Below, piece after piece: positions 8,619 to 20,969 of a DNA stretch of 64,000 nt. Each line of letters starts with the position of its first letter. Position 1 is the stretch's first letter. The notes under the pieces were generated by a model. It saw only the letters and a list, made by a program, of their open reading frames with translations. It was not told where the DNA came from and did not search any database. Source of the DNA: Calothrix sp. PCC 7716 (GTDB lineage: Bacteria > Cyanobacteriota > Cyanobacteriia > Cyanobacteriales > Nostocaceae); the NCBI RefSeq assembly GCF_019977735.1, contig NZ_AP025022.1, positions 1 through 64,000 of the forward strand. The letters run 5' to 3'. A program made the position numbers and the translations under genes.

Positions 8619-10460
8619 CTAGTATTCCAGTCCCCGATTCTTTTTCTTTTCTGCTTCGGGGCGCCCTGTACTTTCTTGCCGCGAATACTCCAAAAGTTCC
8701 GTATTCCAATCAGCAGTTTTTGGTCGTGCTATAGTTGTTTGCGGCAGTAATTCTTTAATAGCTTGTGCCATCGAGCGTCCCGTTTCATCGTTATCGCAGG
8801 CAACAGTAATAGCAGGAATGTCTTTAAGAAAATCCAACGGTAAGCTTTTGGGGCTATCGACAGCTAAAAACATTGTCCTTGTTGGGGGCATACCAGAATT
8901 TGCAGTAATAGATAGTGCAGCACATGAAAGCGCATCGATGGGAGACTTACAGATAACTACTTTTTGTATTTCATCAGTTGGCTTACCGCCTAAGTGAAAG
9001 TAAAACCATCCTTCTGTTCGTTTTGTACCAAGCGCATATCCCATAAACGAATTGTCTTCTCCCCTTGTTCCTCGTAAAAATGCGCCTGTGGTTTCTGTTT
9101 TAAGTGATGGCGCCTCGTTTGGAAGCTCGCGCATTGTAAACACAGCATTTTGCTGGTCGTCAGCATAGAGCCATCCGTTAGAGCGAAGGGCAGTGAGAAA
9201 ATTTTCTGGCAGTCCCCTAGCTTTGGTCAAATAATTCTGTACCGCTTGCCACTTCTCTTCATCCTTTTTTGGAGGTACAAACTGCGGTGCAGGTTCTTCT
9301 GCAACAATTTTAGTGGCTTGTGTTTCTACGTAAGCCTTGGTAGCACGCAGCATTCCAAGAGACCCAAAACGGTCATGCAACCAGGCAACCGAAGACCGAA
9401 AATTACACCCCGAAACATGCATCACCAAATCAATTGCCCCACCACCACCTTTTTCTGCTGTAAAGTCGTACCATTTAGAATCATTAATATTGATAACTTG
9501 CCCTAATCCCTTCCAACGGTTCTCTCCCTTGTCAGCTTTATCTAACCCTAAATGCCACGCTACGTCTTCTAGGGGCAAGTCCCTTAATTGGTCGGCTTGC
9601 TGTTTCCAGTAAAAATTCTCTTCTTCCAATTCATCTACACGGTTTTCTAACTCCGAGCGTAGTTTCTCAGAAGCATTTGCTTTTTGGGATGCCCGTTTTT
9701 CAAGCTCTATAATTCGACGGTGGTCAGCTAGTTGGTGATTGATGGTTTGAATTGTTGGGTCTGATTTTATACGCTTAAACAATTGCTGTGCCGTCTCTCC
9801 CTGTTTTGGCGCCAGTCTATCTAATTCCAGGGTGAGGGGTTCGGAGTTTACTGCTTGATAATATTCTTTAACTTTGGTGTGGGTGGCTTTACTGCCCTTT
9901 ACCCCGCGTTCAATACCCAAAGGCGCCAGTGCTTGGGCATAAGAATCTTGAAACTTGGACAATTTTATACTAGCTTGGCGCCCATCACCCCCAAACATCT
10001 CTTTGTGGCTTAATTGTTTGGTTTTATCGTTGATGGGAACTATATAAGCGTGGATGTGGGGGGTTGCTTCATCTAAATGCAATTCCGCGCGGACGCATTT
10101 ATCACCAAAGTTTTCTTGTAACCATTTGGACGAAGCATTGGCAAAGTCCCACATCAATTCTTCATCCCATTCCCCCGCCCTTGATGGGTCATGGGGACGA
10201 AAAAATTCTGGAGAAGCGCTCAAAAATATTTCGCTGCACAGTACTGCATCTTTACGCGGCTTGTGTTTAGTATGGTCATCTATTTTAGATAAAACTATTT
10301 CTTCTAAAGATGGGTCATCGTCCAAACCCATTAGCCGAATATTTTCTTTATAGGGGTCAGCATTTGGTGTATCTTGGAGACGGGCAGTATGTTTTTCACT
10401 GCCGCCCACACTACCCAAACTTTTTAATTTCCCAACGCGCATGATGGCTTTCGCGGTCAT
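8619..10460 (-). CDS. MobV-type relaxase fused to a CHC2/TOPRIM primase-like module
   Basis: The start is set at 10460, where the protein begins MTAKAIMRVGKLKSLGSVGG, a MobV/Pre-type N-terminus; a longer frame to 10574 is not family-like. Residues 1-200 form the relaxase (Mob_Pre): HLDEATPHIHAYIVPI at about 127-142 supplies the metal-binding histidines. A coiled coil at about 245-290 follows. Then comes a DUF3991-like CHC2 segment (about 305-365, with WYDFTAEKGGGGAIDLV) and a TOPRIM domain (about 490-590, with ICKSPIDALS and ACDNDETGRS). It would nick oriT and bring its own primase-like domain for copying the transferred strand. It points away from a 1.3-kb repeat-rich region that probably holds its oriT. 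Confidence 0.88.
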   Translation of the reverse strand: MTAKAIMRVGKLKSLGSVGGSEKHTARLQDTPNADPYKENIRLMGLDDDPSLEEIVLSKIDDHTKHKPRKDAVLCSEIFLSASPEFFRPHDPSRAGEWDEELMWDFANASSKWLQENFGDKCVRAELHLDEATPHIHAYIVPINDKTKQLSHKEMFGGDGRQASIKLSKFQDSYAQALAPLGIERGVKGSKATHTKVKEYYQAVNSEPLTLELDRLAPKQGETAQQLFKRIKSDPTIQTINHQLADHRRIIELEKRASQKANASEKLRSELENRVDELEEENFYWKQQADQLRDLPLEDVAWHLGLDKADKGENRWKGLGQVININDSKWYDFTAEKGGGGAIDLVMHVSGCNFRSSVAWLHDRFGSLGMLRATKAYVETQATKIVAEEPAPQFVPPKKDEEKWQAVQNYLTKARGLPENFLTALRSNGWLYADDQQNAVFTMRELPNEAPSLKTETTGAFLRGTRGEDNSFMGYALGTKRTEGWFYFHLGGKPTDEIQKVVICKSPIDALSCAALSITANSGMPPTRTMFLAVDSPKSLPLDFLKDIPAITVACDNDETGRSMAQAIKELLPQTTIARPKTADWNTELLEYSRQESTGRPEAEKKKNRGLEY

Positions 10461-10592
10461 TGAAAAAACCCCCACTAATAATCTAGGAACACGACCCGAA
10501 GGGCGAACGTACTTCTGTGTCCGAGAGAGCCGTTTAGGCGAGCGATGGATGGGCGGCGCCCACCCGCAGGGCACAGAAGTGAAGTGAGTACA

Positions 10593-10956: not shown

Positions 10957-11089
10957 GGGACTAAATCGGGACTAAATCGGGAGTCACCATCACTGACGAT
11001 TAGTATTAATATACTGAAAAGCCATGTTTTATCCCGATTTACTCCCGAAAGACTCCCGATTAGTCCCTTTTTTATCCCTATTTACTCCC
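10957..11089. repeat. Direct and inverted repeats of a GGGACTAAATCGGGA-type unit
   Basis: GGGACTAAATC (10957-10967) is followed head-to-tail by GGGACTAAATCGGGAGTC (10968-10985). The complement GACTCCCGATTAGTCCC (11051-11067) lies about 65 bp on, differing by one deleted base. Two further units, TCCCGATTTACTCCC (11032-11046) and TCCCTATTTACTCCC (11075-11089), are also present. Iteron-like spacing beside an AT-rich stretch suggests a replication or transfer origin. The remainder of 10,744-11,640 shows no gene. Confidence 0.6.
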
Positions 11090-14140: not shown

Positions 14141-16834
14141 ATGCCAAGGCGCAAAACACAAGAGGAATTTATCAAAGAAGCTCAAACTAAGCATGGGATG
14201 TTTTACGACTACAGCAAAGTTCTGTACACTAACTCCGCTACCAAAGTTAGTTTGATCTGCCTGCTTCATGGGGAATTTAAAATTACTCCCAGTCATCATC
14301 TTCAAGGTGTTGGTTGTCGCAAATGTTTTAATGATCAAATAAGGAATGATCAGAACACTATCCTTGCTAAGTTTCGTCGGACTCACGGTAATCATTACAA
14401 TTATGAGAAAGTGATTTATGAACGTATAGATATAAAAGTTACGATTGGGTGCCCAATTCATGGTGATTTTGAACAAGCTCCAGCAGCCCATATAGCTGGC
14501 TCAGGCTGCCCTAAGTGTGCGGTTGAGAAACAAGCTTTGTCGAAAGAGGAATTTATTATAAAAGCTCAAGCTAAACATAGAGATAGATATGATTACAGTC
14601 AAATCGTCTATGTTAATAACTCAACTAAAGTAACAATTATCTGCCCACAGCACGGGGCTTTTGAGCAACTACCTGGGAACCATATTCGAGGAAGTAAATG
14701 TCCTGAATGTTCTAAAGAAAATATAAGTGAAGCCAAATTTGGCTTTCAATATAACGATGTTCGTTATCGCAGTATTAAACACGCTTGTCAAATGCTAGGC
14801 AAGGATTACTGGGTTGTTCTCAAGCGGCTAGATGCAGGTTGGACTTTAAAGCAAGCTTTTGATGAAGAACCTCATAACCCTCGACATCCTTTTGAAGTTA
14901 ATGGAATTATTTATAACGGTATAGAAGATGCTGTTCGTCGGCTAAATGCTCCTGTTAGCTCTGCAACTGTTAGAAGGCGACTTGCGGAAGGAATGGATGT
15001 AGATCAAGCTCTGTTTACCCCTCCTAAACTTGGTTACGGTAATGGGGTTGTTTACGCAATTACTAACCTTTTAAATGGTAAGCAATACGTAGGATTAACT
15101 ACAACATCTGTAGAAGAGCGATGGGAGAGGCACTTAGAACAGACATTAAGGAAAGAGGCTTCTCTAATTCACAAAGCGATCGTTGAATTTGGCGAGGATA
15201 ACTTTACACTTGAAGTGATTGATCAAGCCTCTAGTATAGAGGAATTACGGACTAAAGAGCGTGAATGGATTCAAAAATTAAACACTCTTTTCCCGAAGGG
15301 TTATAACGTAACTTTAGGCGGAGAGGTTGGTGGCGCCCCAGGCAAACCTACAAAGCTTCCTGGAGATTCTACACTATATCCATCTGTTAAAACAGCGGCA
15401 CAAGCTTTAGCTGAACGAGAAGGAATTAGTTTAGAAGCTGCTGAGAAAAGAATTTATGTTAGTCGTATTAGCGTAGGAAAATCCTATTATCAGGTTGATG
15501 CCCATCGGGTTAATGTAAAGAAACCTCATGGAATGTCTAAAACCCGAATTTACAAATATTGGAGTAGATTAGTTCACCAAGCTGCTAACCCCAACTCTAA
15601 AGAATACAATGGCTCCGCTATTTGTGAACGTTGGAAGGATTTTCATAACTTCTACGAAGACATGGGTGAAGGATATCAAGAAGGTTTGTGCCTGAAGTTA
15701 ATCGAGAAAGCCCTTCCCTATTCTAAAGAGAATTGTTTATGGGTTACTACCAGTGAGTTACATCGAAGTCATGGAATGGTGAGAACCAGGCTTTATGGAG
15801 TCTGGGCTAATTTAGTTCAGAATATTGCTAACCCTGAATCGAATTTGTATAGAGGAGTACCTATTGATCCTCGCTGGCGAAACTTTATTTTGTTTAACGA
15901 GGATATGGGCGATAAATATGAAGAAGGAAAAATTCTCCAATTAATAAACACAAGCCAACCATACTGCAAAGACAACTGTCAGTGGGTCTGGCAACATGGA
16001 GAACAACAAGCACATCCGTTGTTTGGCACCCGTTTGTATAAACTTTGGAGACGGACTGTAAATGAGTATTGTAATCCAAACTCCAAGAATTACAACGGCT
16101 CCAAAATTTGCGACCGCTGGCATGATTTTGCGTTGTTTTGTGAAGACATGGCTTCGACATATCAGAAGGGATTTAAGATGATTCGACTTAATCCCAATAT
16201 GCCGTTCTCACCAGAAAACTGTGAATGGAAAAATCAGCGGGAAGCATCTCAAACACATGGAATGATGGGAACAAAATTTTATCAAATTTGGGCAAGGCTA
16301 AAGCATCATCGTACTAATTCAACAGCCAAAGCTTATGAAGGGACGGCTTTGTGTGAACGTTGGCTTCGGTTTGAGAACTTTAAAGCTGATATGTATGATT
16401 GTTATCAGGAAGGAATGGGTTTGAAGTTGATTGACCCAAGCGAGCCATATTCTAAGGAAAATTGTCAATGGATGACTGGTTCTGATCTGCGTAAAAAACA
16501 CCCCATGTCCGACTCTAGAATTTACCAAATATGGCGACGCTTGGTGAATGAACATGCTAACCCTAAAGCTAGAGGTTACTTAGGAGTTCAGGTCTGCAAC
16601 CGTTGGCACGACTTTAACAATTTTTACATTGATATGTGTTTGGGCTATGTTGATGGTCTTTGTTTAGCTGTTATTGACCCAGACCTTCCCTACGCTCACG
16701 GGAACTGTGAGTGGGTTACAAAAAATGAAGCTATTAGTCGAGGTCGGCTACGTAGATTTAAGAGGGCAAACAGCACGGAGTATACAAAATGTAGCTATCA
16801 AATGAAGGTAAATATTAATACTTCACTGCCATGA
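14141..16834 (+). CDS. GIY-YIG nuclease with three zinc modules and five 81-residue repeats
   Basis: An 897-residue modular protein. Residues about 8-194 hold three copies of a zinc-binding unit (YDYSKVxY, then C-x2-HG-x-F, then C-x2-C). Residues 200-290 contain two NUMOD1-like helical modules (YRSIKHACQML and YNGIEDAVRRL). The GIY-YIG nuclease core follows (VVYAITN at 302, KQYVGLT at 315, EERWERHL and a glutamate in TKEREW). After another helix module come five tandem repeats starting at 465, 546, 627, 708 and 789, each exactly 81 residues, with W-x2-L, NPNSKxYNG, ICERWxDF, DM, Y-x-EG, YSKENCxW. The repeat resembles the single AP2/HNH-associated domain of phage proteins. The zinc, NUMOD and repeat modules likely bind DNA. 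Confidence 0.85.
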   Translation: MPRRKTQEEFIKEAQTKHGMFYDYSKVLYTNSATKVSLICLLHGEFKITPSHHLQGVGCRKCFNDQIRNDQNTILAKFRRTHGNHYNYEKVIYERIDIKVTIGCPIHGDFEQAPAAHIAGSGCPKCAVEKQALSKEEFIIKAQAKHRDRYDYSQIVYVNNSTKVTIICPQHGAFEQLPGNHIRGSKCPECSKENISEAKFGFQYNDVRYRSIKHACQMLGKDYWVVLKRLDAGWTLKQAFDEEPHNPRHPFEVNGIIYNGIEDAVRRLNAPVSSATVRRRLAEGMDVDQALFTPPKLGYGNGVVYAITNLLNGKQYVGLTTTSVEERWERHLEQTLRKEASLIHKAIVEFGEDNFTLEVIDQASSIEELRTKEREWIQKLNTLFPKGYNVTLGGEVGGAPGKPTKLPGDSTLYPSVKTAAQALAEREGISLEAAEKRIYVSRISVGKSYYQVDAHRVNVKKPHGMSKTRIYKYWSRLVHQAANPNSKEYNGSAICERWKDFHNFYEDMGEGYQEGLCLKLIEKALPYSKENCLWVTTSELHRSHGMVRTRLYGVWANLVQNIANPESNLYRGVPIDPRWRNFILFNEDMGDKYEEGKILQLINTSQPYCKDNCQWVWQHGEQQAHPLFGTRLYKLWRRTVNEYCNPNSKNYNGSKICDRWHDFALFCEDMASTYQKGFKMIRLNPNMPFSPENCEWKNQREASQTHGMMGTKFYQIWARLKHHRTNSTAKAYEGTALCERWLRFENFKADMYDCYQEGMGLKLIDPSEPYSKENCQWMTGSDLRKKHPMSDSRIYQIWRRLVNEHANPKARGYLGVQVCNRWHDFNNFYIDMCLGYVDGLCLAVIDPDLPYAHGNCEWVTKNEAISRGRLRRFKRANSTEYTKCSYQMKVNINTSLP

Positions 16835-18714: not shown

Positions 18715-19938
18715 CTACGGAAGAGCCTTACTTTCAAAGAACATTTTATTTGATAAATCATTTATAAAAGAGTATCGATAACCTATAAAACCACGATTTT
18801 CAGGATTTTCTTCAATGATATTTTTTATCCACAAGTCTTTTATATTAGAATTCCTAATGAAGCTACTATAGTCTTTTTTTCCTATTTTTAGAATATCTGA
18901 TAATTTAGGATACTGAAGTATTTGACCTATATTATTATCTGCTTGTGAAGGAGTTTTTAAGAAAGATGTCCACTCTGCGCTTTCCAAATCAGATTGAAAT
19001 GGTAGTAGAAAAGGAAAGTATTGAAAATCCTCAATTTCCCCTTTGTTCGTGTAGTTCTTATTATTGATATTAAAATTATCTTGTCTCTGAATATGAACTG
19101 TTTCCCCATTGTTGAAATGTTTAGTATCTCCTTCATAAGTACGACCGCCTTGATTACGTTGATAATGATGTGAGTAGCCCTCTTCAATATGAATTATTTT
19201 TTGATTACCGCTTTCATTGGCAAATCTTTTTATATTTTTATAAATAGGATTATCTGTATCAACCAGCGGTTTACCATTTAAATTTTTCAGCGCACTTTCA
19301 GTTAGCTCTTTCGGAATACCTTCTTCTATTAAAGCCAAGACTGGATAGTGATTTATGCCTGTAATATAGTTTAAGTAAATTGGTCCTCTACGAATACCAG
19401 GTACAACTACTGATGGAATAAAAAACCACGATGATAAAGATACAATCAAAAAAGTTGTCAATCCACTAGTTAACCTTATTGCCCATTTATTTAAAGAAAT
19501 CTCTCTTTCTAAAGCAAGAGTATCTAACAAAAGAGAAACAGAAATTCCCATTGTCAAAGAAATTATCAGTATAAAAATTTTTAATATACTTTCTTCAGTA
19601 GGAGGATTAATACATAAAATTATAAAACAAACAATAACTGCAACTATTAAGATTAACCCAATTATCCGCTTACGGATAATAAGATTTTCATCTCGTAATT
19701 GACGAAAAACTTTTAAAATCGTCTCTGCATCTGTCCCTTGATAAATAACACGATTACCAATATTAACAGCCTCAGCTTTACCAATATCACCAAGATTTAC
19801 GTTGCCGTTACCAAGTTGTAAAACAGTCTGATCGCCACTAAAAATTAAGGCATCGCGTAGAGTATTAATATCAGCCTTGTTATGTTGATCTGCGGCAATC
19901 CTGTCTAGAATTGCTTTCAGTTCATCAAGATTGCTCAT
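18715..19938 (-). CDS. Multi-pass membrane effector with N-terminal amyloid/RHIM-like motif
   Basis: A 407-residue protein encoded 11 nt after the caspase gene. Residues 1-30 form a helix seen in cyanobacterial effector-associated modules (LKAILDRIAADQHNKADI). Residues 35-61 contain GDQTVLQLGNGNVNLGDIG and a second NIG, matching the C-terminal motif of the caspase and resembling the V-Q-L-G core of RHIM-type amyloid motifs. Three membrane segments follow (about 92-110, 119-140, 155-178). The remaining 230 residues are soluble and polar, with no enzyme motif seen. I infer a membrane-disrupting or signalling partner recruited by the caspase through matching motifs. ATG at 19938. Confidence 0.68.
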   Translation of the reverse strand: MSNLDELKAILDRIAADQHNKADINTLRDALIFSGDQTVLQLGNGNVNLGDIGKAEAVNIGNRVIYQGTDAETILKVFRQLRDENLIIRKRIIGLILIVAVIVCFIILCINPPTEESILKIFILIISLTMGISVSLLLDTLALEREISLNKWAIRLTSGLTTFLIVSLSSWFFIPSVVVPGIRRGPIYLNYITGINHYPVLALIEEGIPKELTESALKNLNGKPLVDTDNPIYKNIKRFANESGNQKIIHIEEGYSHHYQRNQGGRTYEGDTKHFNNGETVHIQRQDNFNINNKNYTNKGEIEDFQYFPFLLPFQSDLESAEWTSFLKTPSQADNNIGQILQYPKLSDILKIGKKDYSSFIRNSNIKDLWIKNIIEENPENRGFIGYRYSFINDLSNKMFFESKALP

Positions 19939-19949
19939 ATAAGTTATGA

Positions 19950-20969
19950 TTATTTTTCTGCTTGAGATTTGCTACCTAGAGTTATGTCTCTAGCTCTTCC
20001 TATTTGTCCAATGTTTATGTTGTCTGAGCCAGACTGCTCTACATTTTGGTCGCCAGAACTGATTGTAACATCCCTGCCTGCTGCCACTACCCTCCCTATT
20101 GTCTCCGCCGCTTCAGAATGCTGCACCTCATCCCATCCAGAGTTGGGTAAGCCTTTGCCCCCACGCAACACTGCTACAGCAAAATCCTCTGCTGCTAAGT
20201 CAAAATACGGTGTTTGCTCGGTTTGATAGTTACACTTAGTGCTTTCTGGCACAGCCTTACTAATATAGTTCATTAGGTTAGAAACTTTTACTACTGTCTC
20301 ACCTGGTTTGTTGCCAGCCCCTTGCAGCGCTTCAATTAAGTGGTAAGTGTATATGCTCATTGCACCATCACTGCGAATCCAAGACGCTTGCTTTCCACGA
20401 GATGATGTAAATACTGCCCTTCCTTCACCGTGCTTCAGGTCATCAATTAACTGTTTGGGCAAAGCCGTTTGCACAAAATTAGAGGGGAGTTTGATTGTAG
20501 CCTGTTCATTCTTAGCAGTCGCCATACCCTCAGCGTGGCAACTATCGATAATAACCAACAGTCGTTGCGCTTGTATCTGGCGTAACGCTTTAGTAAAGTC
20601 TTCGGCAGAGAGAGCAGAGTTGGCGATATCAAAGGGTTCAACGTCGTGTTGAATCAAATAGTATTTGCCTGTGGACTCATCAAGCCAGCCATGACCGGAG
20701 TAGTAGACCACAACTGTAGCTTCCGAGTCAGCGTCAGCTTGCTCTTTGAGCCAGGTTAGGCTATCCAAGATGGCATGACGTGTAGCAGCAGTGTCGTGCA
20801 GGATACGAAAGTTATGCTCACCACTGATATACCCACATAAGTTAGGGTCAGTGAGGATAGAGTGGAGCGCTTGAATGTCCTTAACCGTGGTAGGGAGCGA
20901 CCATTTTGGGTAAGCGGATTCGCCCACACCAATAAGCAGAGCGTAACCATGAGGAAATGTACTTGACAT
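19950..20969 (-). CDS. Caspase-family (C14) protease with C-terminal amyloid-like motif
   Basis: A 339-residue metacaspase/orthocaspase-type protease. The p20 core has VVVYYSGHGWLD with the catalytic His at about 93 and LVIIDSCHAEGM with the catalytic Cys at about 144. A FTSSRGKQASW segment and a p10-like part follow. After residue 300 the tail VTISSGDQNVEQSGSDNINI plus GQIG (306-324) is not part of the fold; it repeats the motif of the downstream membrane protein. Cyanobacterial caspases cut after basic residues and are linked to regulated cell death. This gene is first in its operon, so the tail probably couples protease activation to the membrane partner. The ATG at 20969 gives a full-length fold. 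Confidence 0.85.
   Translation of the reverse strand: MSSTFPHGYALLIGVGESAYPKWSLPTTVKDIQALHSILTDPNLCGYISGEHNFRILHDTAATRHAILDSLTWLKEQADADSEATVVVYYSGHGWLDESTGKYYLIQHDVEPFDIANSALSAEDFTKALRQIQAQRLLVIIDSCHAEGMATAKNEQATIKLPSNFVQTALPKQLIDDLKHGEGRAVFTSSRGKQASWIRSDGAMSIYTYHLIEALQGAGNKPGETVVKVSNLMNYISKAVPESTKCNYQTEQTPYFDLAAEDFAVAVLRGGKGLPNSGWDEVQHSEAAETIGRVVAAGRDVTISSGDQNVEQSGSDNINIGQIGRARDITLGSKSQAEK

What the first reader, a model, noticed from the sequence alone, without database searches (positions are those of the whole stretch)
14141..16834. GIY-YIG nuclease with an exact five-fold 81-residue repeat array
The sequence shows repeats starting at residues 465, 546, 627, 708 and 789, a period of 243 bp with no indels. 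Each unit resembles the AP2/HNH-associated domain that normally occurs once in small phage proteins (W, NPNS, ICERW, DM, YSKENCxW). With three zinc modules and NUMOD-like helices before the nuclease, this looks like a modular DNA-recognition array attached to a cutter. Tandem modules of fixed length in different sequence versions could read a long target, as TAL or zinc-finger arrays do, but that is inference.
Basis: partly seen in the sequence, partly recalled or inferred. Interest (0 to 1): 0.9.

Follow-up and report, generated by a model that had tools for sequence, protein, structure and literature searches.

The report
Plasmid nuclease with five-unit module array
A DNA-cutting enzyme carried by a cyanobacterium ends in five copies of one small folded module that phages normally use singly, and its relatives carry one, two or four copies, which suggests a kit of interchangeable parts for recognising DNA, though no binding has been shown.

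Summary
Confirmed. ORF 14141-16834(+), 897 aa, carries five ungapped 81-residue units at residues 465, 546, 627, 708 and 789, Zn modules (DUF723/DUF4379) and a GIY-YIG domain keeping the counterparts of I-TevI R27 and E75. AlphaFold2 folds each unit as a compact bead (two-unit pLDDT 93.5). The unit derives from a module present once in 171 of 179 fetched ORFs, without a Pfam model. Single modules resemble HNH_3 weakly; the array units mostly lost the residues aligned with the HNH site, so they look like dead scaffolds. The window and relatives with the same core carry 5, 4, 4, 2 and 1 units. DNA binding is untested. A search for unit-specific, orthologue-fixed positions (a TAL-like code) found no excess over simulation, and the array is only mildly basic. 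Repeated Zn modules of varying number on GIY-YIG homing nucleases are published (PMC10448857), so this is a new variant: a second, C-terminal array of another module. Best reading: a mobile homing-type nuclease whose bead arrays bind target DNA.

The parts
14141..16834 (+). Whole ORF: 897-aa GIY-YIG nuclease with N-terminal Zn modules and C-terminal five-unit array
14159..14326 (+). Zn module 1 (residues ~7-62; C40, H43, C59, C62 by eye)
   Evidence: same Cys/His pattern as modules 2 and 3 (by eye); AF2 helix + three strands + helix
14351..14518 (+). Zn module 2 (residues ~71-126; C104, H107, C123, C126 by eye)
   Evidence: DUF723 best stretch 93-127
14543..14710 (+). Zn module 3 (residues ~135-190; C168, H171, C187, C190 by eye)
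   Evidence: DUF4379 best stretch 156-192
14738..15025 (+). Two NUMOD-like strand/helix-turn-helix elements (residues ~200-244 and 250-295)
   Evidence: AF2 secondary structure only; PHROG 3190, unknown function, at 242-295; no Pfam NUMOD
15041..15325 (+). GIY-YIG catalytic domain (residues 301-395); R327 and E373 align with I-TevI R27 and E75
   Evidence: PF01541 38.5 bits vs cut-off 22.6; phmmer to 1mk0/1ln0; Foldseek TM 0.81-0.83 by target length
15344..15469 (+). Third NUMOD-like strand/helix element (residues ~402-443), followed by a low-confidence linker
   Evidence: AF2
15533..15775 (+). Unit 1 (residues 465-545)
15776..16018 (+). Unit 2 (residues 546-626)
16019..16261 (+). Unit 3 (residues 627-707)
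16262..16504 (+). Unit 4 (residues 708-788)
16505..16747 (+). Unit 5 (residues 789-869); no counterpart in the relatives found
16748..16831 (+). Basic C-terminal tail, predicted disordered (residues 870-897)
   Evidence: pLDDT < 50 at 871-897; K+R 6, D+E 1

Best explanation
This is a mobile, free-standing homing-type GIY-YIG endonuclease. One nuclease domain cuts, and two sets of beads on a string (three Zn modules in front, five 81-residue modules behind) place it on a long DNA target. The 81-residue modules derive from a single-copy phage module, probably an HNH-type beta-beta-alpha fold, whose conserved functional residues were mostly lost while the scaffold was kept. Their number changes by recombination at unit boundaries, so that target length or preference can change stepwise. 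Shown here by sequence: the array, its fold prediction, varying unit number, purifying selection, loss of most of the conserved site, intact GIY-YIG catalytic residues. Inferred: that the units touch DNA, that the protein cuts a specific site, that cutting serves mobility, and that unit number changes specificity.
For: GIY-YIG above cut-off, fold and catalytic residues match I-TevI. The Zn families above cut-off are those that Barth et al. describe as repeated DNA-binding beads in GIY-YIG-superfamily homing nucleases (PMC10448857, section 23 read). Units: AF2 pLDDT 93.5 for units 1-2 and the same elements in all five. Array units vs single modules E ~1e-33. R56, in 107 of 107 non-array modules, is L/V in 9 of 11 array units (the two unit-3 rows keep R); a loop of about five residues with YGGR is lost. 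Unit number: window 5; Lyngbya L013 4; G744 4; G785 2; phage contig L055 1; Tolypothrix plasmids 1 truncated; more distant G370 and G658 1. G785 keeps units 1 and 4 of G744; 224 diagnostic sites switch between array positions 242 and 254, with six exceptions; the unit boundary is 243. dN/dS of units 1-4 vs G744 0.14, like the N-terminal part, 0.15. Found on mobilizable plasmids, an IMG/VR contig and a chromosomal interval that holds other sequence in relatives.
Against: No binding or cleavage data. Array net charge only +7 over 405 residues; array units are not more basic than single modules (mean +2.6, n 11, vs +3.7, sd 3.0, n 105). No excess of unit-specific positions over neutral simulation. 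Full-length pTM 0.32, so bead arrangement is unknown. No clean empty site found, so homing is unproven. HNH ancestry is weak: P 2.3e-4 for single modules; array units alone give P 0.1 against HNH_3, worse than P 0.02 against a GIY-YIG control; Foldseek's best PDB match for the two-unit model has E 0.98. Unit dN/dS between the two closest relatives is higher (0.43, 0.41) than that of the N-terminal part (0.22), on few changes.
Confidence: 0.5

Rival explanations
1. The array does not read DNA: it is a spacer, an oligomerisation or a protein-contact arm, and the Zn modules plus the NUMOD-like helices carry all target specificity; unit number drifts.
For: Relatives with one unit, or one truncated unit, occur on plasmids and a phage contig; charge is near neutral; Arg16, Arg26 and Arg56, conserved in single modules, are mostly replaced; no excess of unit-specific fixed positions; higher dN/dS of units than of the N-terminal part between G744 and G785, on few changes.
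Against: The four shared units together are under purifying selection like that of the N-terminal part between window and G744, and units 2-4 keep their order across window, Lyngbya and G744, which a mere spacer does not need. The module belongs to families that PHROGs calls HNH or restriction endonuclease.
Confidence: 0.3
2. The protein is an interference nuclease of mobile elements (as ICP1 Odn cuts the origin of a phage satellite) rather than a homing enzyme: it cuts rival plasmids or phages.
For: Resident on mobilizable plasmids, with mobilisation and partition genes nearby; a relaxase in the window; Odn is a precedent with a T5orf172 nuclease domain of the same superfamily (PMC8263062, passages seen).
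Against: Also present in a chromosomal interval and on a phage contig. Linked immunity or methylase genes were not looked for. Homing and interference are hard to tell apart from sequence.
Confidence: 0.2
3. The 81-residue units are active nucleases themselves, so the protein has up to six cutting centres.
For: PHROG families hitting the units are named HNH endonuclease or restriction endonuclease; single modules show weak HNH_3 similarity.
Against: The column aligned with the HNH histidine is Arg in all 107 non-array modules and Leu/Val in 9 of 11 array units; the column aligned with the last His is Asn in 89 of 107 and variable in the array. The units lost a conserved loop.
Confidence: 0.04

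Closest known systems
T5orf172/GIY-YIG homing endonucleases with repeated Zn modules (CapR, DUF723, and a domain printed as DUF4397 in the text and DUF723/4379 in a figure legend; Barth et al. 2023, PMC10448857)
   Same: GIY-YIG-superfamily nuclease, repeated Zn modules of these families, repeat number changed by in-frame recombination, presumed beads-on-a-string DNA binding
   Different: Our nuclease domain matches PF01541 with no PF10544 listed, and it carries a second, C-terminal array of a different 81-residue module, up to five copies; the section read does not mention such a module
I-TevI (GIY-YIG intron endonuclease)
   Same: Catalytic fold (TM 0.81-0.83 by target length), R27/E75 counterparts, nuclease followed by DNA-binding elements
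   Different: I-TevI DNA-binding part is short (recalled); here Zn modules precede the nuclease and a 405-residue array follows it
PHROG 3377, 8790 and 374 (phage HNH endonuclease / restriction endonuclease families)
   Same: Their profiles match the units (five or six stretches each)
   Different: In the fetched loci the module is single in 171 of 179 ORFs, and non-array modules keep the D/E-R-I-D-N stretch and YGGR loop that the array mostly lost
HNH_3 (PF13392)
   Same: Beta-hairpin plus helix pattern of the C-terminal half of the single modules (P 2.3e-4)
   Different: H-N-H residues are not in place in single modules or array units
TAL effector repeats
   Same: Tandem units of fixed length with varying number
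   Different: 34-residue helical repeats with a two-residue code (recalled); here 81-residue alpha/beta beads and no code detected

Membership tests
GIY-YIG nuclease superfamily | Pfam GIY-YIG domain above curated cut-off | tested here: met
   38.5 bits vs 22.6, residues 302-389
GIY-YIG nuclease superfamily | Catalytic Arg and Glu (I-TevI R27, E75) | tested here: met
   R327 and E373 align with the two positions at which the 1ln0 and 1mk0 sequences differ from each other; 1mk0 is titled E75A; that 1ln0 is R27A is recalled
GIY-YIG nuclease superfamily | I-TevI-like catalytic fold | tested here: met
   Foldseek 1mk0 E 9.6e-4, TM 0.81 by target length, 1.8 A
Homing endonuclease | Cuts the allele lacking its gene, and the gene is copied in | not testable with these tools
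   needs biochemistry and crosses
Homing endonuclease | Identifiable empty site at the insertion point | tested here: inconclusive
   OKR decarboxylase-YchF interval holds the gene in G744 and G785; some relatives hold other ORFs there, L305 a short interval; no flanking DNA shared between window and Tolypothrix plasmids was found
T5orf172 homing nucleases with Zn beads | Repeated DUF723/DUF4379/CapR Zn modules | tested here: met
   DUF4379 28.4 vs 24.5 and DUF723 25.3 vs 20.9 bits, two stretches each; CapR 13.5 vs 24.2, below cut-off
T5orf172 homing nucleases with Zn beads | T5orf172 (PF10544) nuclease domain | tested here: not met
   not among the 7 Pfam families listed at E<=10; the domain is PF01541
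HNH nuclease (81-residue units) | His-Asn-His catalytic residues | tested here: not met
   columns aligned with the two His of HNH_3 are R/N in single modules and mostly L/variable in array units
HNH nuclease (81-residue units) | beta-beta-alpha metal fold | tested here: inconclusive
HNH nuclease (81-residue units) | Profile similarity to HNH_3 | tested here: inconclusive
   105 single modules: probability 44.5, P 2.3e-4, four control profiles P 0.17-0.43; 11 array units: P 0.1, with one control (GIY-YIG) at P 0.02; 3 of 118 members match HNH_3, best E 7.1e-4
TAL-like code array | Variable number of fixed-length tandem units | tested here: met
   5, 4, 4, 2, 1 units in window and relatives
TAL-like code array | Hypervariable base-reading positions | tested here: inconclusive
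   2 of 81 columns meet the criterion; 52 of 500 neutral simulations reach that
TAL-like code array | DNA binding of the array | not testable with these tools
   needs binding assay or complex structure

The most novel reading that the evidence does not exclude
A naturally occurring modular DNA-recognition array made of inactivated HNH-type beads: each bead contacts a fixed stretch of DNA, array length sets target length, and whole-bead gain or loss (as between G744 and G785) switches targets in one step, giving a reprogrammable nuclease scaffold independent of zinc fingers and TAL repeats.
Probability: 0.13. Interest if true: 0.85.

Novelty: new variant of a known kind. Interest (0 to 1): 0.55.

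Why it matters
Few protein arrays are known to bind DNA unit by unit. This family offers a ready natural series (1, 2, 4, 4 and 5 units on one nuclease core), including two close relatives that differ by exactly two units, so whether added beads lengthen or change the target can be tested with existing genes. It also exposes a common phage module with no Pfam model, and a likely case of a catalytic fold turned into a repeated scaffold.

Tried and rejected
AP2 domain: not among the 7 Pfam families listed for the protein, nor among the 25 of 29 shown for the 118 module sequences; in my calls the label is the annotation of one Klebsiella plasmid protein. PBDC1, a weak Pfam match of 7 of 118 modules (best E 0.0025), and single-member matches such as Tox-ART-HYE1 (1 of 118, E 1.9e-4) are treated as noise. 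NCBIfam: eight families, each matched by 1 of 118 members, best E 0.0049.

TAL-like code: columns fixed within orthologous units but different between units looked striking (16, 52, 53), but simulation on the fitted tree gives as many in 52 of 500 runs, the strict pattern in 70 of 500, and a mean contrast at least as large in 354 of 500. Rejected as evidence.

Phage unit L055 as a unit 1/unit 2 chimera: first third is nearer unit 1 (13-14 of 26 against 9-11) and last third nearer unit 2 (13-15 of 27 against 9-11), but unit 5 of the window also scores 13 of 26 in the first third; the tree joins it to unit 2. Too thin to claim.

Remnants of further units behind the truncated Tolypothrix gene: none found by tblastn at E<=1 in the 950 bases taken from the unit on. 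Rfam on six loci: no match at gathering score. Empty insertion site: no clean one; the chromosomal interval holds other ORFs in several relatives. The conserved ~300-bp stretch in that interval is a small ORF by eye, not an RNA gene known to Rfam.

Full report
OBSERVATION. The ORF at 14141-16834(+) encodes 897 residues. Five 81-residue units start at 465, 546, 627, 708 and 789, without indels; pairwise identity is 27-41 of 81, and within lags 40-259 only 81, 162 and 243 exceed 0.14 identity. DNA identity between units is 116-141 of 243, so the duplication is old. Pfam gives GIY-YIG (302-389), DUF4379 and DUF723 (two stretches each), all above cut-off; four further families, one of them (PBDC1) over unit 1, are below theirs. 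PHROGs 3377, 8790 and 374, named HNH or restriction endonuclease, match in six, five and five stretches, the best around unit 1.

GENOMIC SETTING. The window is part of an 81,719-bp contig of a 12.4-Mb genome in 10 contigs. A Mob_Pre relaxase with DUF3991/Toprim lies at 8619-10574, so the contig is probably a plasmid (inference). Close relatives lie on mobilizable MOBP plasmids of Tolypothrix/Microchaete between mobilisation and partition genes, on a Lyngbya contig (the neighbouring mobC/relaxase-like ORFs were read by eye), on a 73.7-kb IMG/VR contig beside a long ORF that looks like a tape-measure gene (by eye), and between an Orn/Lys/Arg decarboxylase and YchF in G744 and G785, with a further 1062-aa ORF before YchF in G744. 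DNA similarity between window and Tolypothrix begins 3 bases before the ATG, and a sister Tolypothrix plasmid carries other cargo in that interval. The gene moves among contexts.

UNIT NUMBER. Sharing the GIY-YIG core: window 5; Lyngbya HA4199-MV5 4; G744 4; G785 2; phage contig L055 1, without Zn modules; Tolypothrix/Microchaete plasmids 1, the protein ending at residue 72 of the unit in two records and running on into an unrelated tail in PCC 7601. A more distant clade has one unit each: G370, G658, G656 with an incomplete front, Cupriavidus necator C39, interrupted by another ORF. G634 has stops inside, and G672 is a fragment with a stop. Genome searches: 41 of 388 genomes of the class matched at 1e-6, of which 3 over the core (G000, G179 = Lyngbya, G370); 13 of 388 of the order at 1e-12, of which G000, G658 and G634 over most of the core and G656, G672 in part; 12 of 217 of the family at 1e-12, of which G000, G749 (coordinates of the Tolypothrix PCC 7712 plasmid), G744 and G785 over the core. 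The sets overlap in part; the other listed matches cover only a single module, the GIY-YIG domain or Zn modules. In the 343 sequences held (window and loci chosen by similarity, so not a population sample), 179 distinct ORFs carry the module: 171 once, 5 twice, 2 four times, 1 five times.

HOW THE NUMBER CHANGES. G785 and G744 are close (first 450 residues: 402 identical; DNA 1235 of 1350). G785 has G744's unit 1 (71 of 81) followed by G744's unit 4 (76 of 81). Of 224 diagnostic sites, the switch from left to right register falls between positions 242 and 254 of the array, where the unit boundary is 243; four sites before it and two after it disagree. Exactly 486 bp are missing. Units 2, 3 and 4 cluster by position across genomes; unit 1 rows do not form a supported group of their own, though window and Tolypothrix unit 1 pair at 83/74. 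So loss of units 2-3 in G785 is the simplest direction. Unit 5 of the window has no counterpart; its placement in the trees is weak.

SELECTION. Window versus G744: dN/dS 0.14 for units 1-4 together (0.085-0.193 singly) and 0.15 for residues 1-440. Window versus Lyngbya is near saturation at synonymous sites (dS about 1.5 or more). Between G744 and G785 the ratio of the two units is 0.43 and 0.41, on few changes (20 and 8), against 0.22 for the N-terminal part.

WHAT THE MODULE IS. The single-copy form reads, in consensus, YGGRGI.VC.RW..F.NF..DMG..P.G..LDRIDN.G.YSPENCRWAT..EQ..N.R. It has no Pfam model of its own in this library: 3 of 118 members touch HNH_3. hhalign of 105 single modules against 14 HNH_3 sequences gives probability 44.5 and P 2.3e-4 over the hairpin-helix part, with four controls at P 0.17-0.43; 11 array units alone give P 0.1 against HNH_3, and P 0.02-0.46 against the controls, so no signal. 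Array units and single modules are clearly homologous (E about 1e-33). Comparing 107 non-array modules with 11 array units: scaffold residues G27, N67, C68, W70 are kept; R56 (107 of 107) is L/V in 9 of 11, the two unit-3 rows keeping R; D/E55 (90 of 107) is K in 6 of 11 and D or E in none; N79 (89 of 107) becomes variable; a loop of about five residues with YGGR is lost. R56 and N79 fall near the first and last His of HNH in the alignment (read by eye). So the array units look like scaffolds without most of the conserved site, and even the single module lacks canonical H-N-H residues.

DOES IT READ DNA? Not shown. For: the parental context (nuclease families), position-specific conservation, the precedent of Zn beads. 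Against: array net charge +7 over 405 residues, mean unit net charge +2.6 (n 11) against +3.7 (sd 3.0, n 105) for single modules, and no statistical sign of a code. The code test compared four unit groups with three to five sequences each: 2 of 81 columns are fixed within orthologues (>=0.9) and differ between units (<=0.1); simulations on the fitted LG+G tree reach this in 52 of 500.

KNOWN OR NEW. Barth et al. 2023 (PMC10448857; section 23 read in full; other passages) already describe GIY-YIG-superfamily (T5orf172) homing nucleases with repeated CapR/DUF723 and related Zn modules, call them beads on a string, and report a predicted 228-bp in-frame loss by recombination. The GIY-YIG superfamily survey (PMC1564403; passages seen) describes C-terminal NUMODs. 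PMC8263062 (passages seen) describes Odn. Eight literature searches listed no title or abstract opening that describes an array of this module or tandem HNH-like modules behind a GIY-YIG domain; I opened three papers in part, and subscription papers are mostly not held. I therefore rate it a new variant of a known kind.

VERDICT. Real, conserved and evolving by whole-unit loss; most likely part of the target-binding arm of a mobile GIY-YIG nuclease; the TAL-like reading remains open and unsupported by the one statistical test made.

Noticed in passing
window 18715-20969: Adjacent minus-strand genes: a caspase/CHAT-type peptidase (19950-20969) and a protein with EAD10 effector-associated domain (18715-19938); by inference a bacterial conflict pair.
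   Followed up: no
window 8619-10574: Relaxase-like Mob_Pre domain in one ORF with DUF3991 and Toprim, suggesting a plasmid mobilisation/primase protein.
   Followed up: no
window 10957-10982: Short 11-bp tandem repeat GGGACTAAATC, 2.4 perfect copies, upstream of the relaxase gene.
   Followed up: no
L016 5754-5914: About 160-bp element just upstream of the Tolypothrix nuclease gene, 96% identical to a stretch of a Nostoc carneum plasmid and 85-86% to a Nostoc C057 plasmid: a possible small mobile repeat.
   Followed up: partly
L018 4890-6233: The Cupriavidus necator C39 relative is split by an ORF that looks like a transposase (by eye only); the record carries one annotated feature.
   Followed up: no
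L297 7942-15287 and L298 8922-11201: Interval between Orn/Lys/Arg decarboxylase and YchF GTPase holds different small ORFs in several related genomes: an apparent insertion hotspot.
   Followed up: partly
L022, L023, L014, L117: Four proteins with two single-type modules, whose first copies depart from the D/E-R-I-D consensus (by eye): a possible first step towards arrays.
   Followed up: partly
G000:C2:271560-271844 (L002): The same genome holds a 287-aa frame with one distant copy of the module; similar frames occur in other genomes of the genus and family.
   Followed up: no
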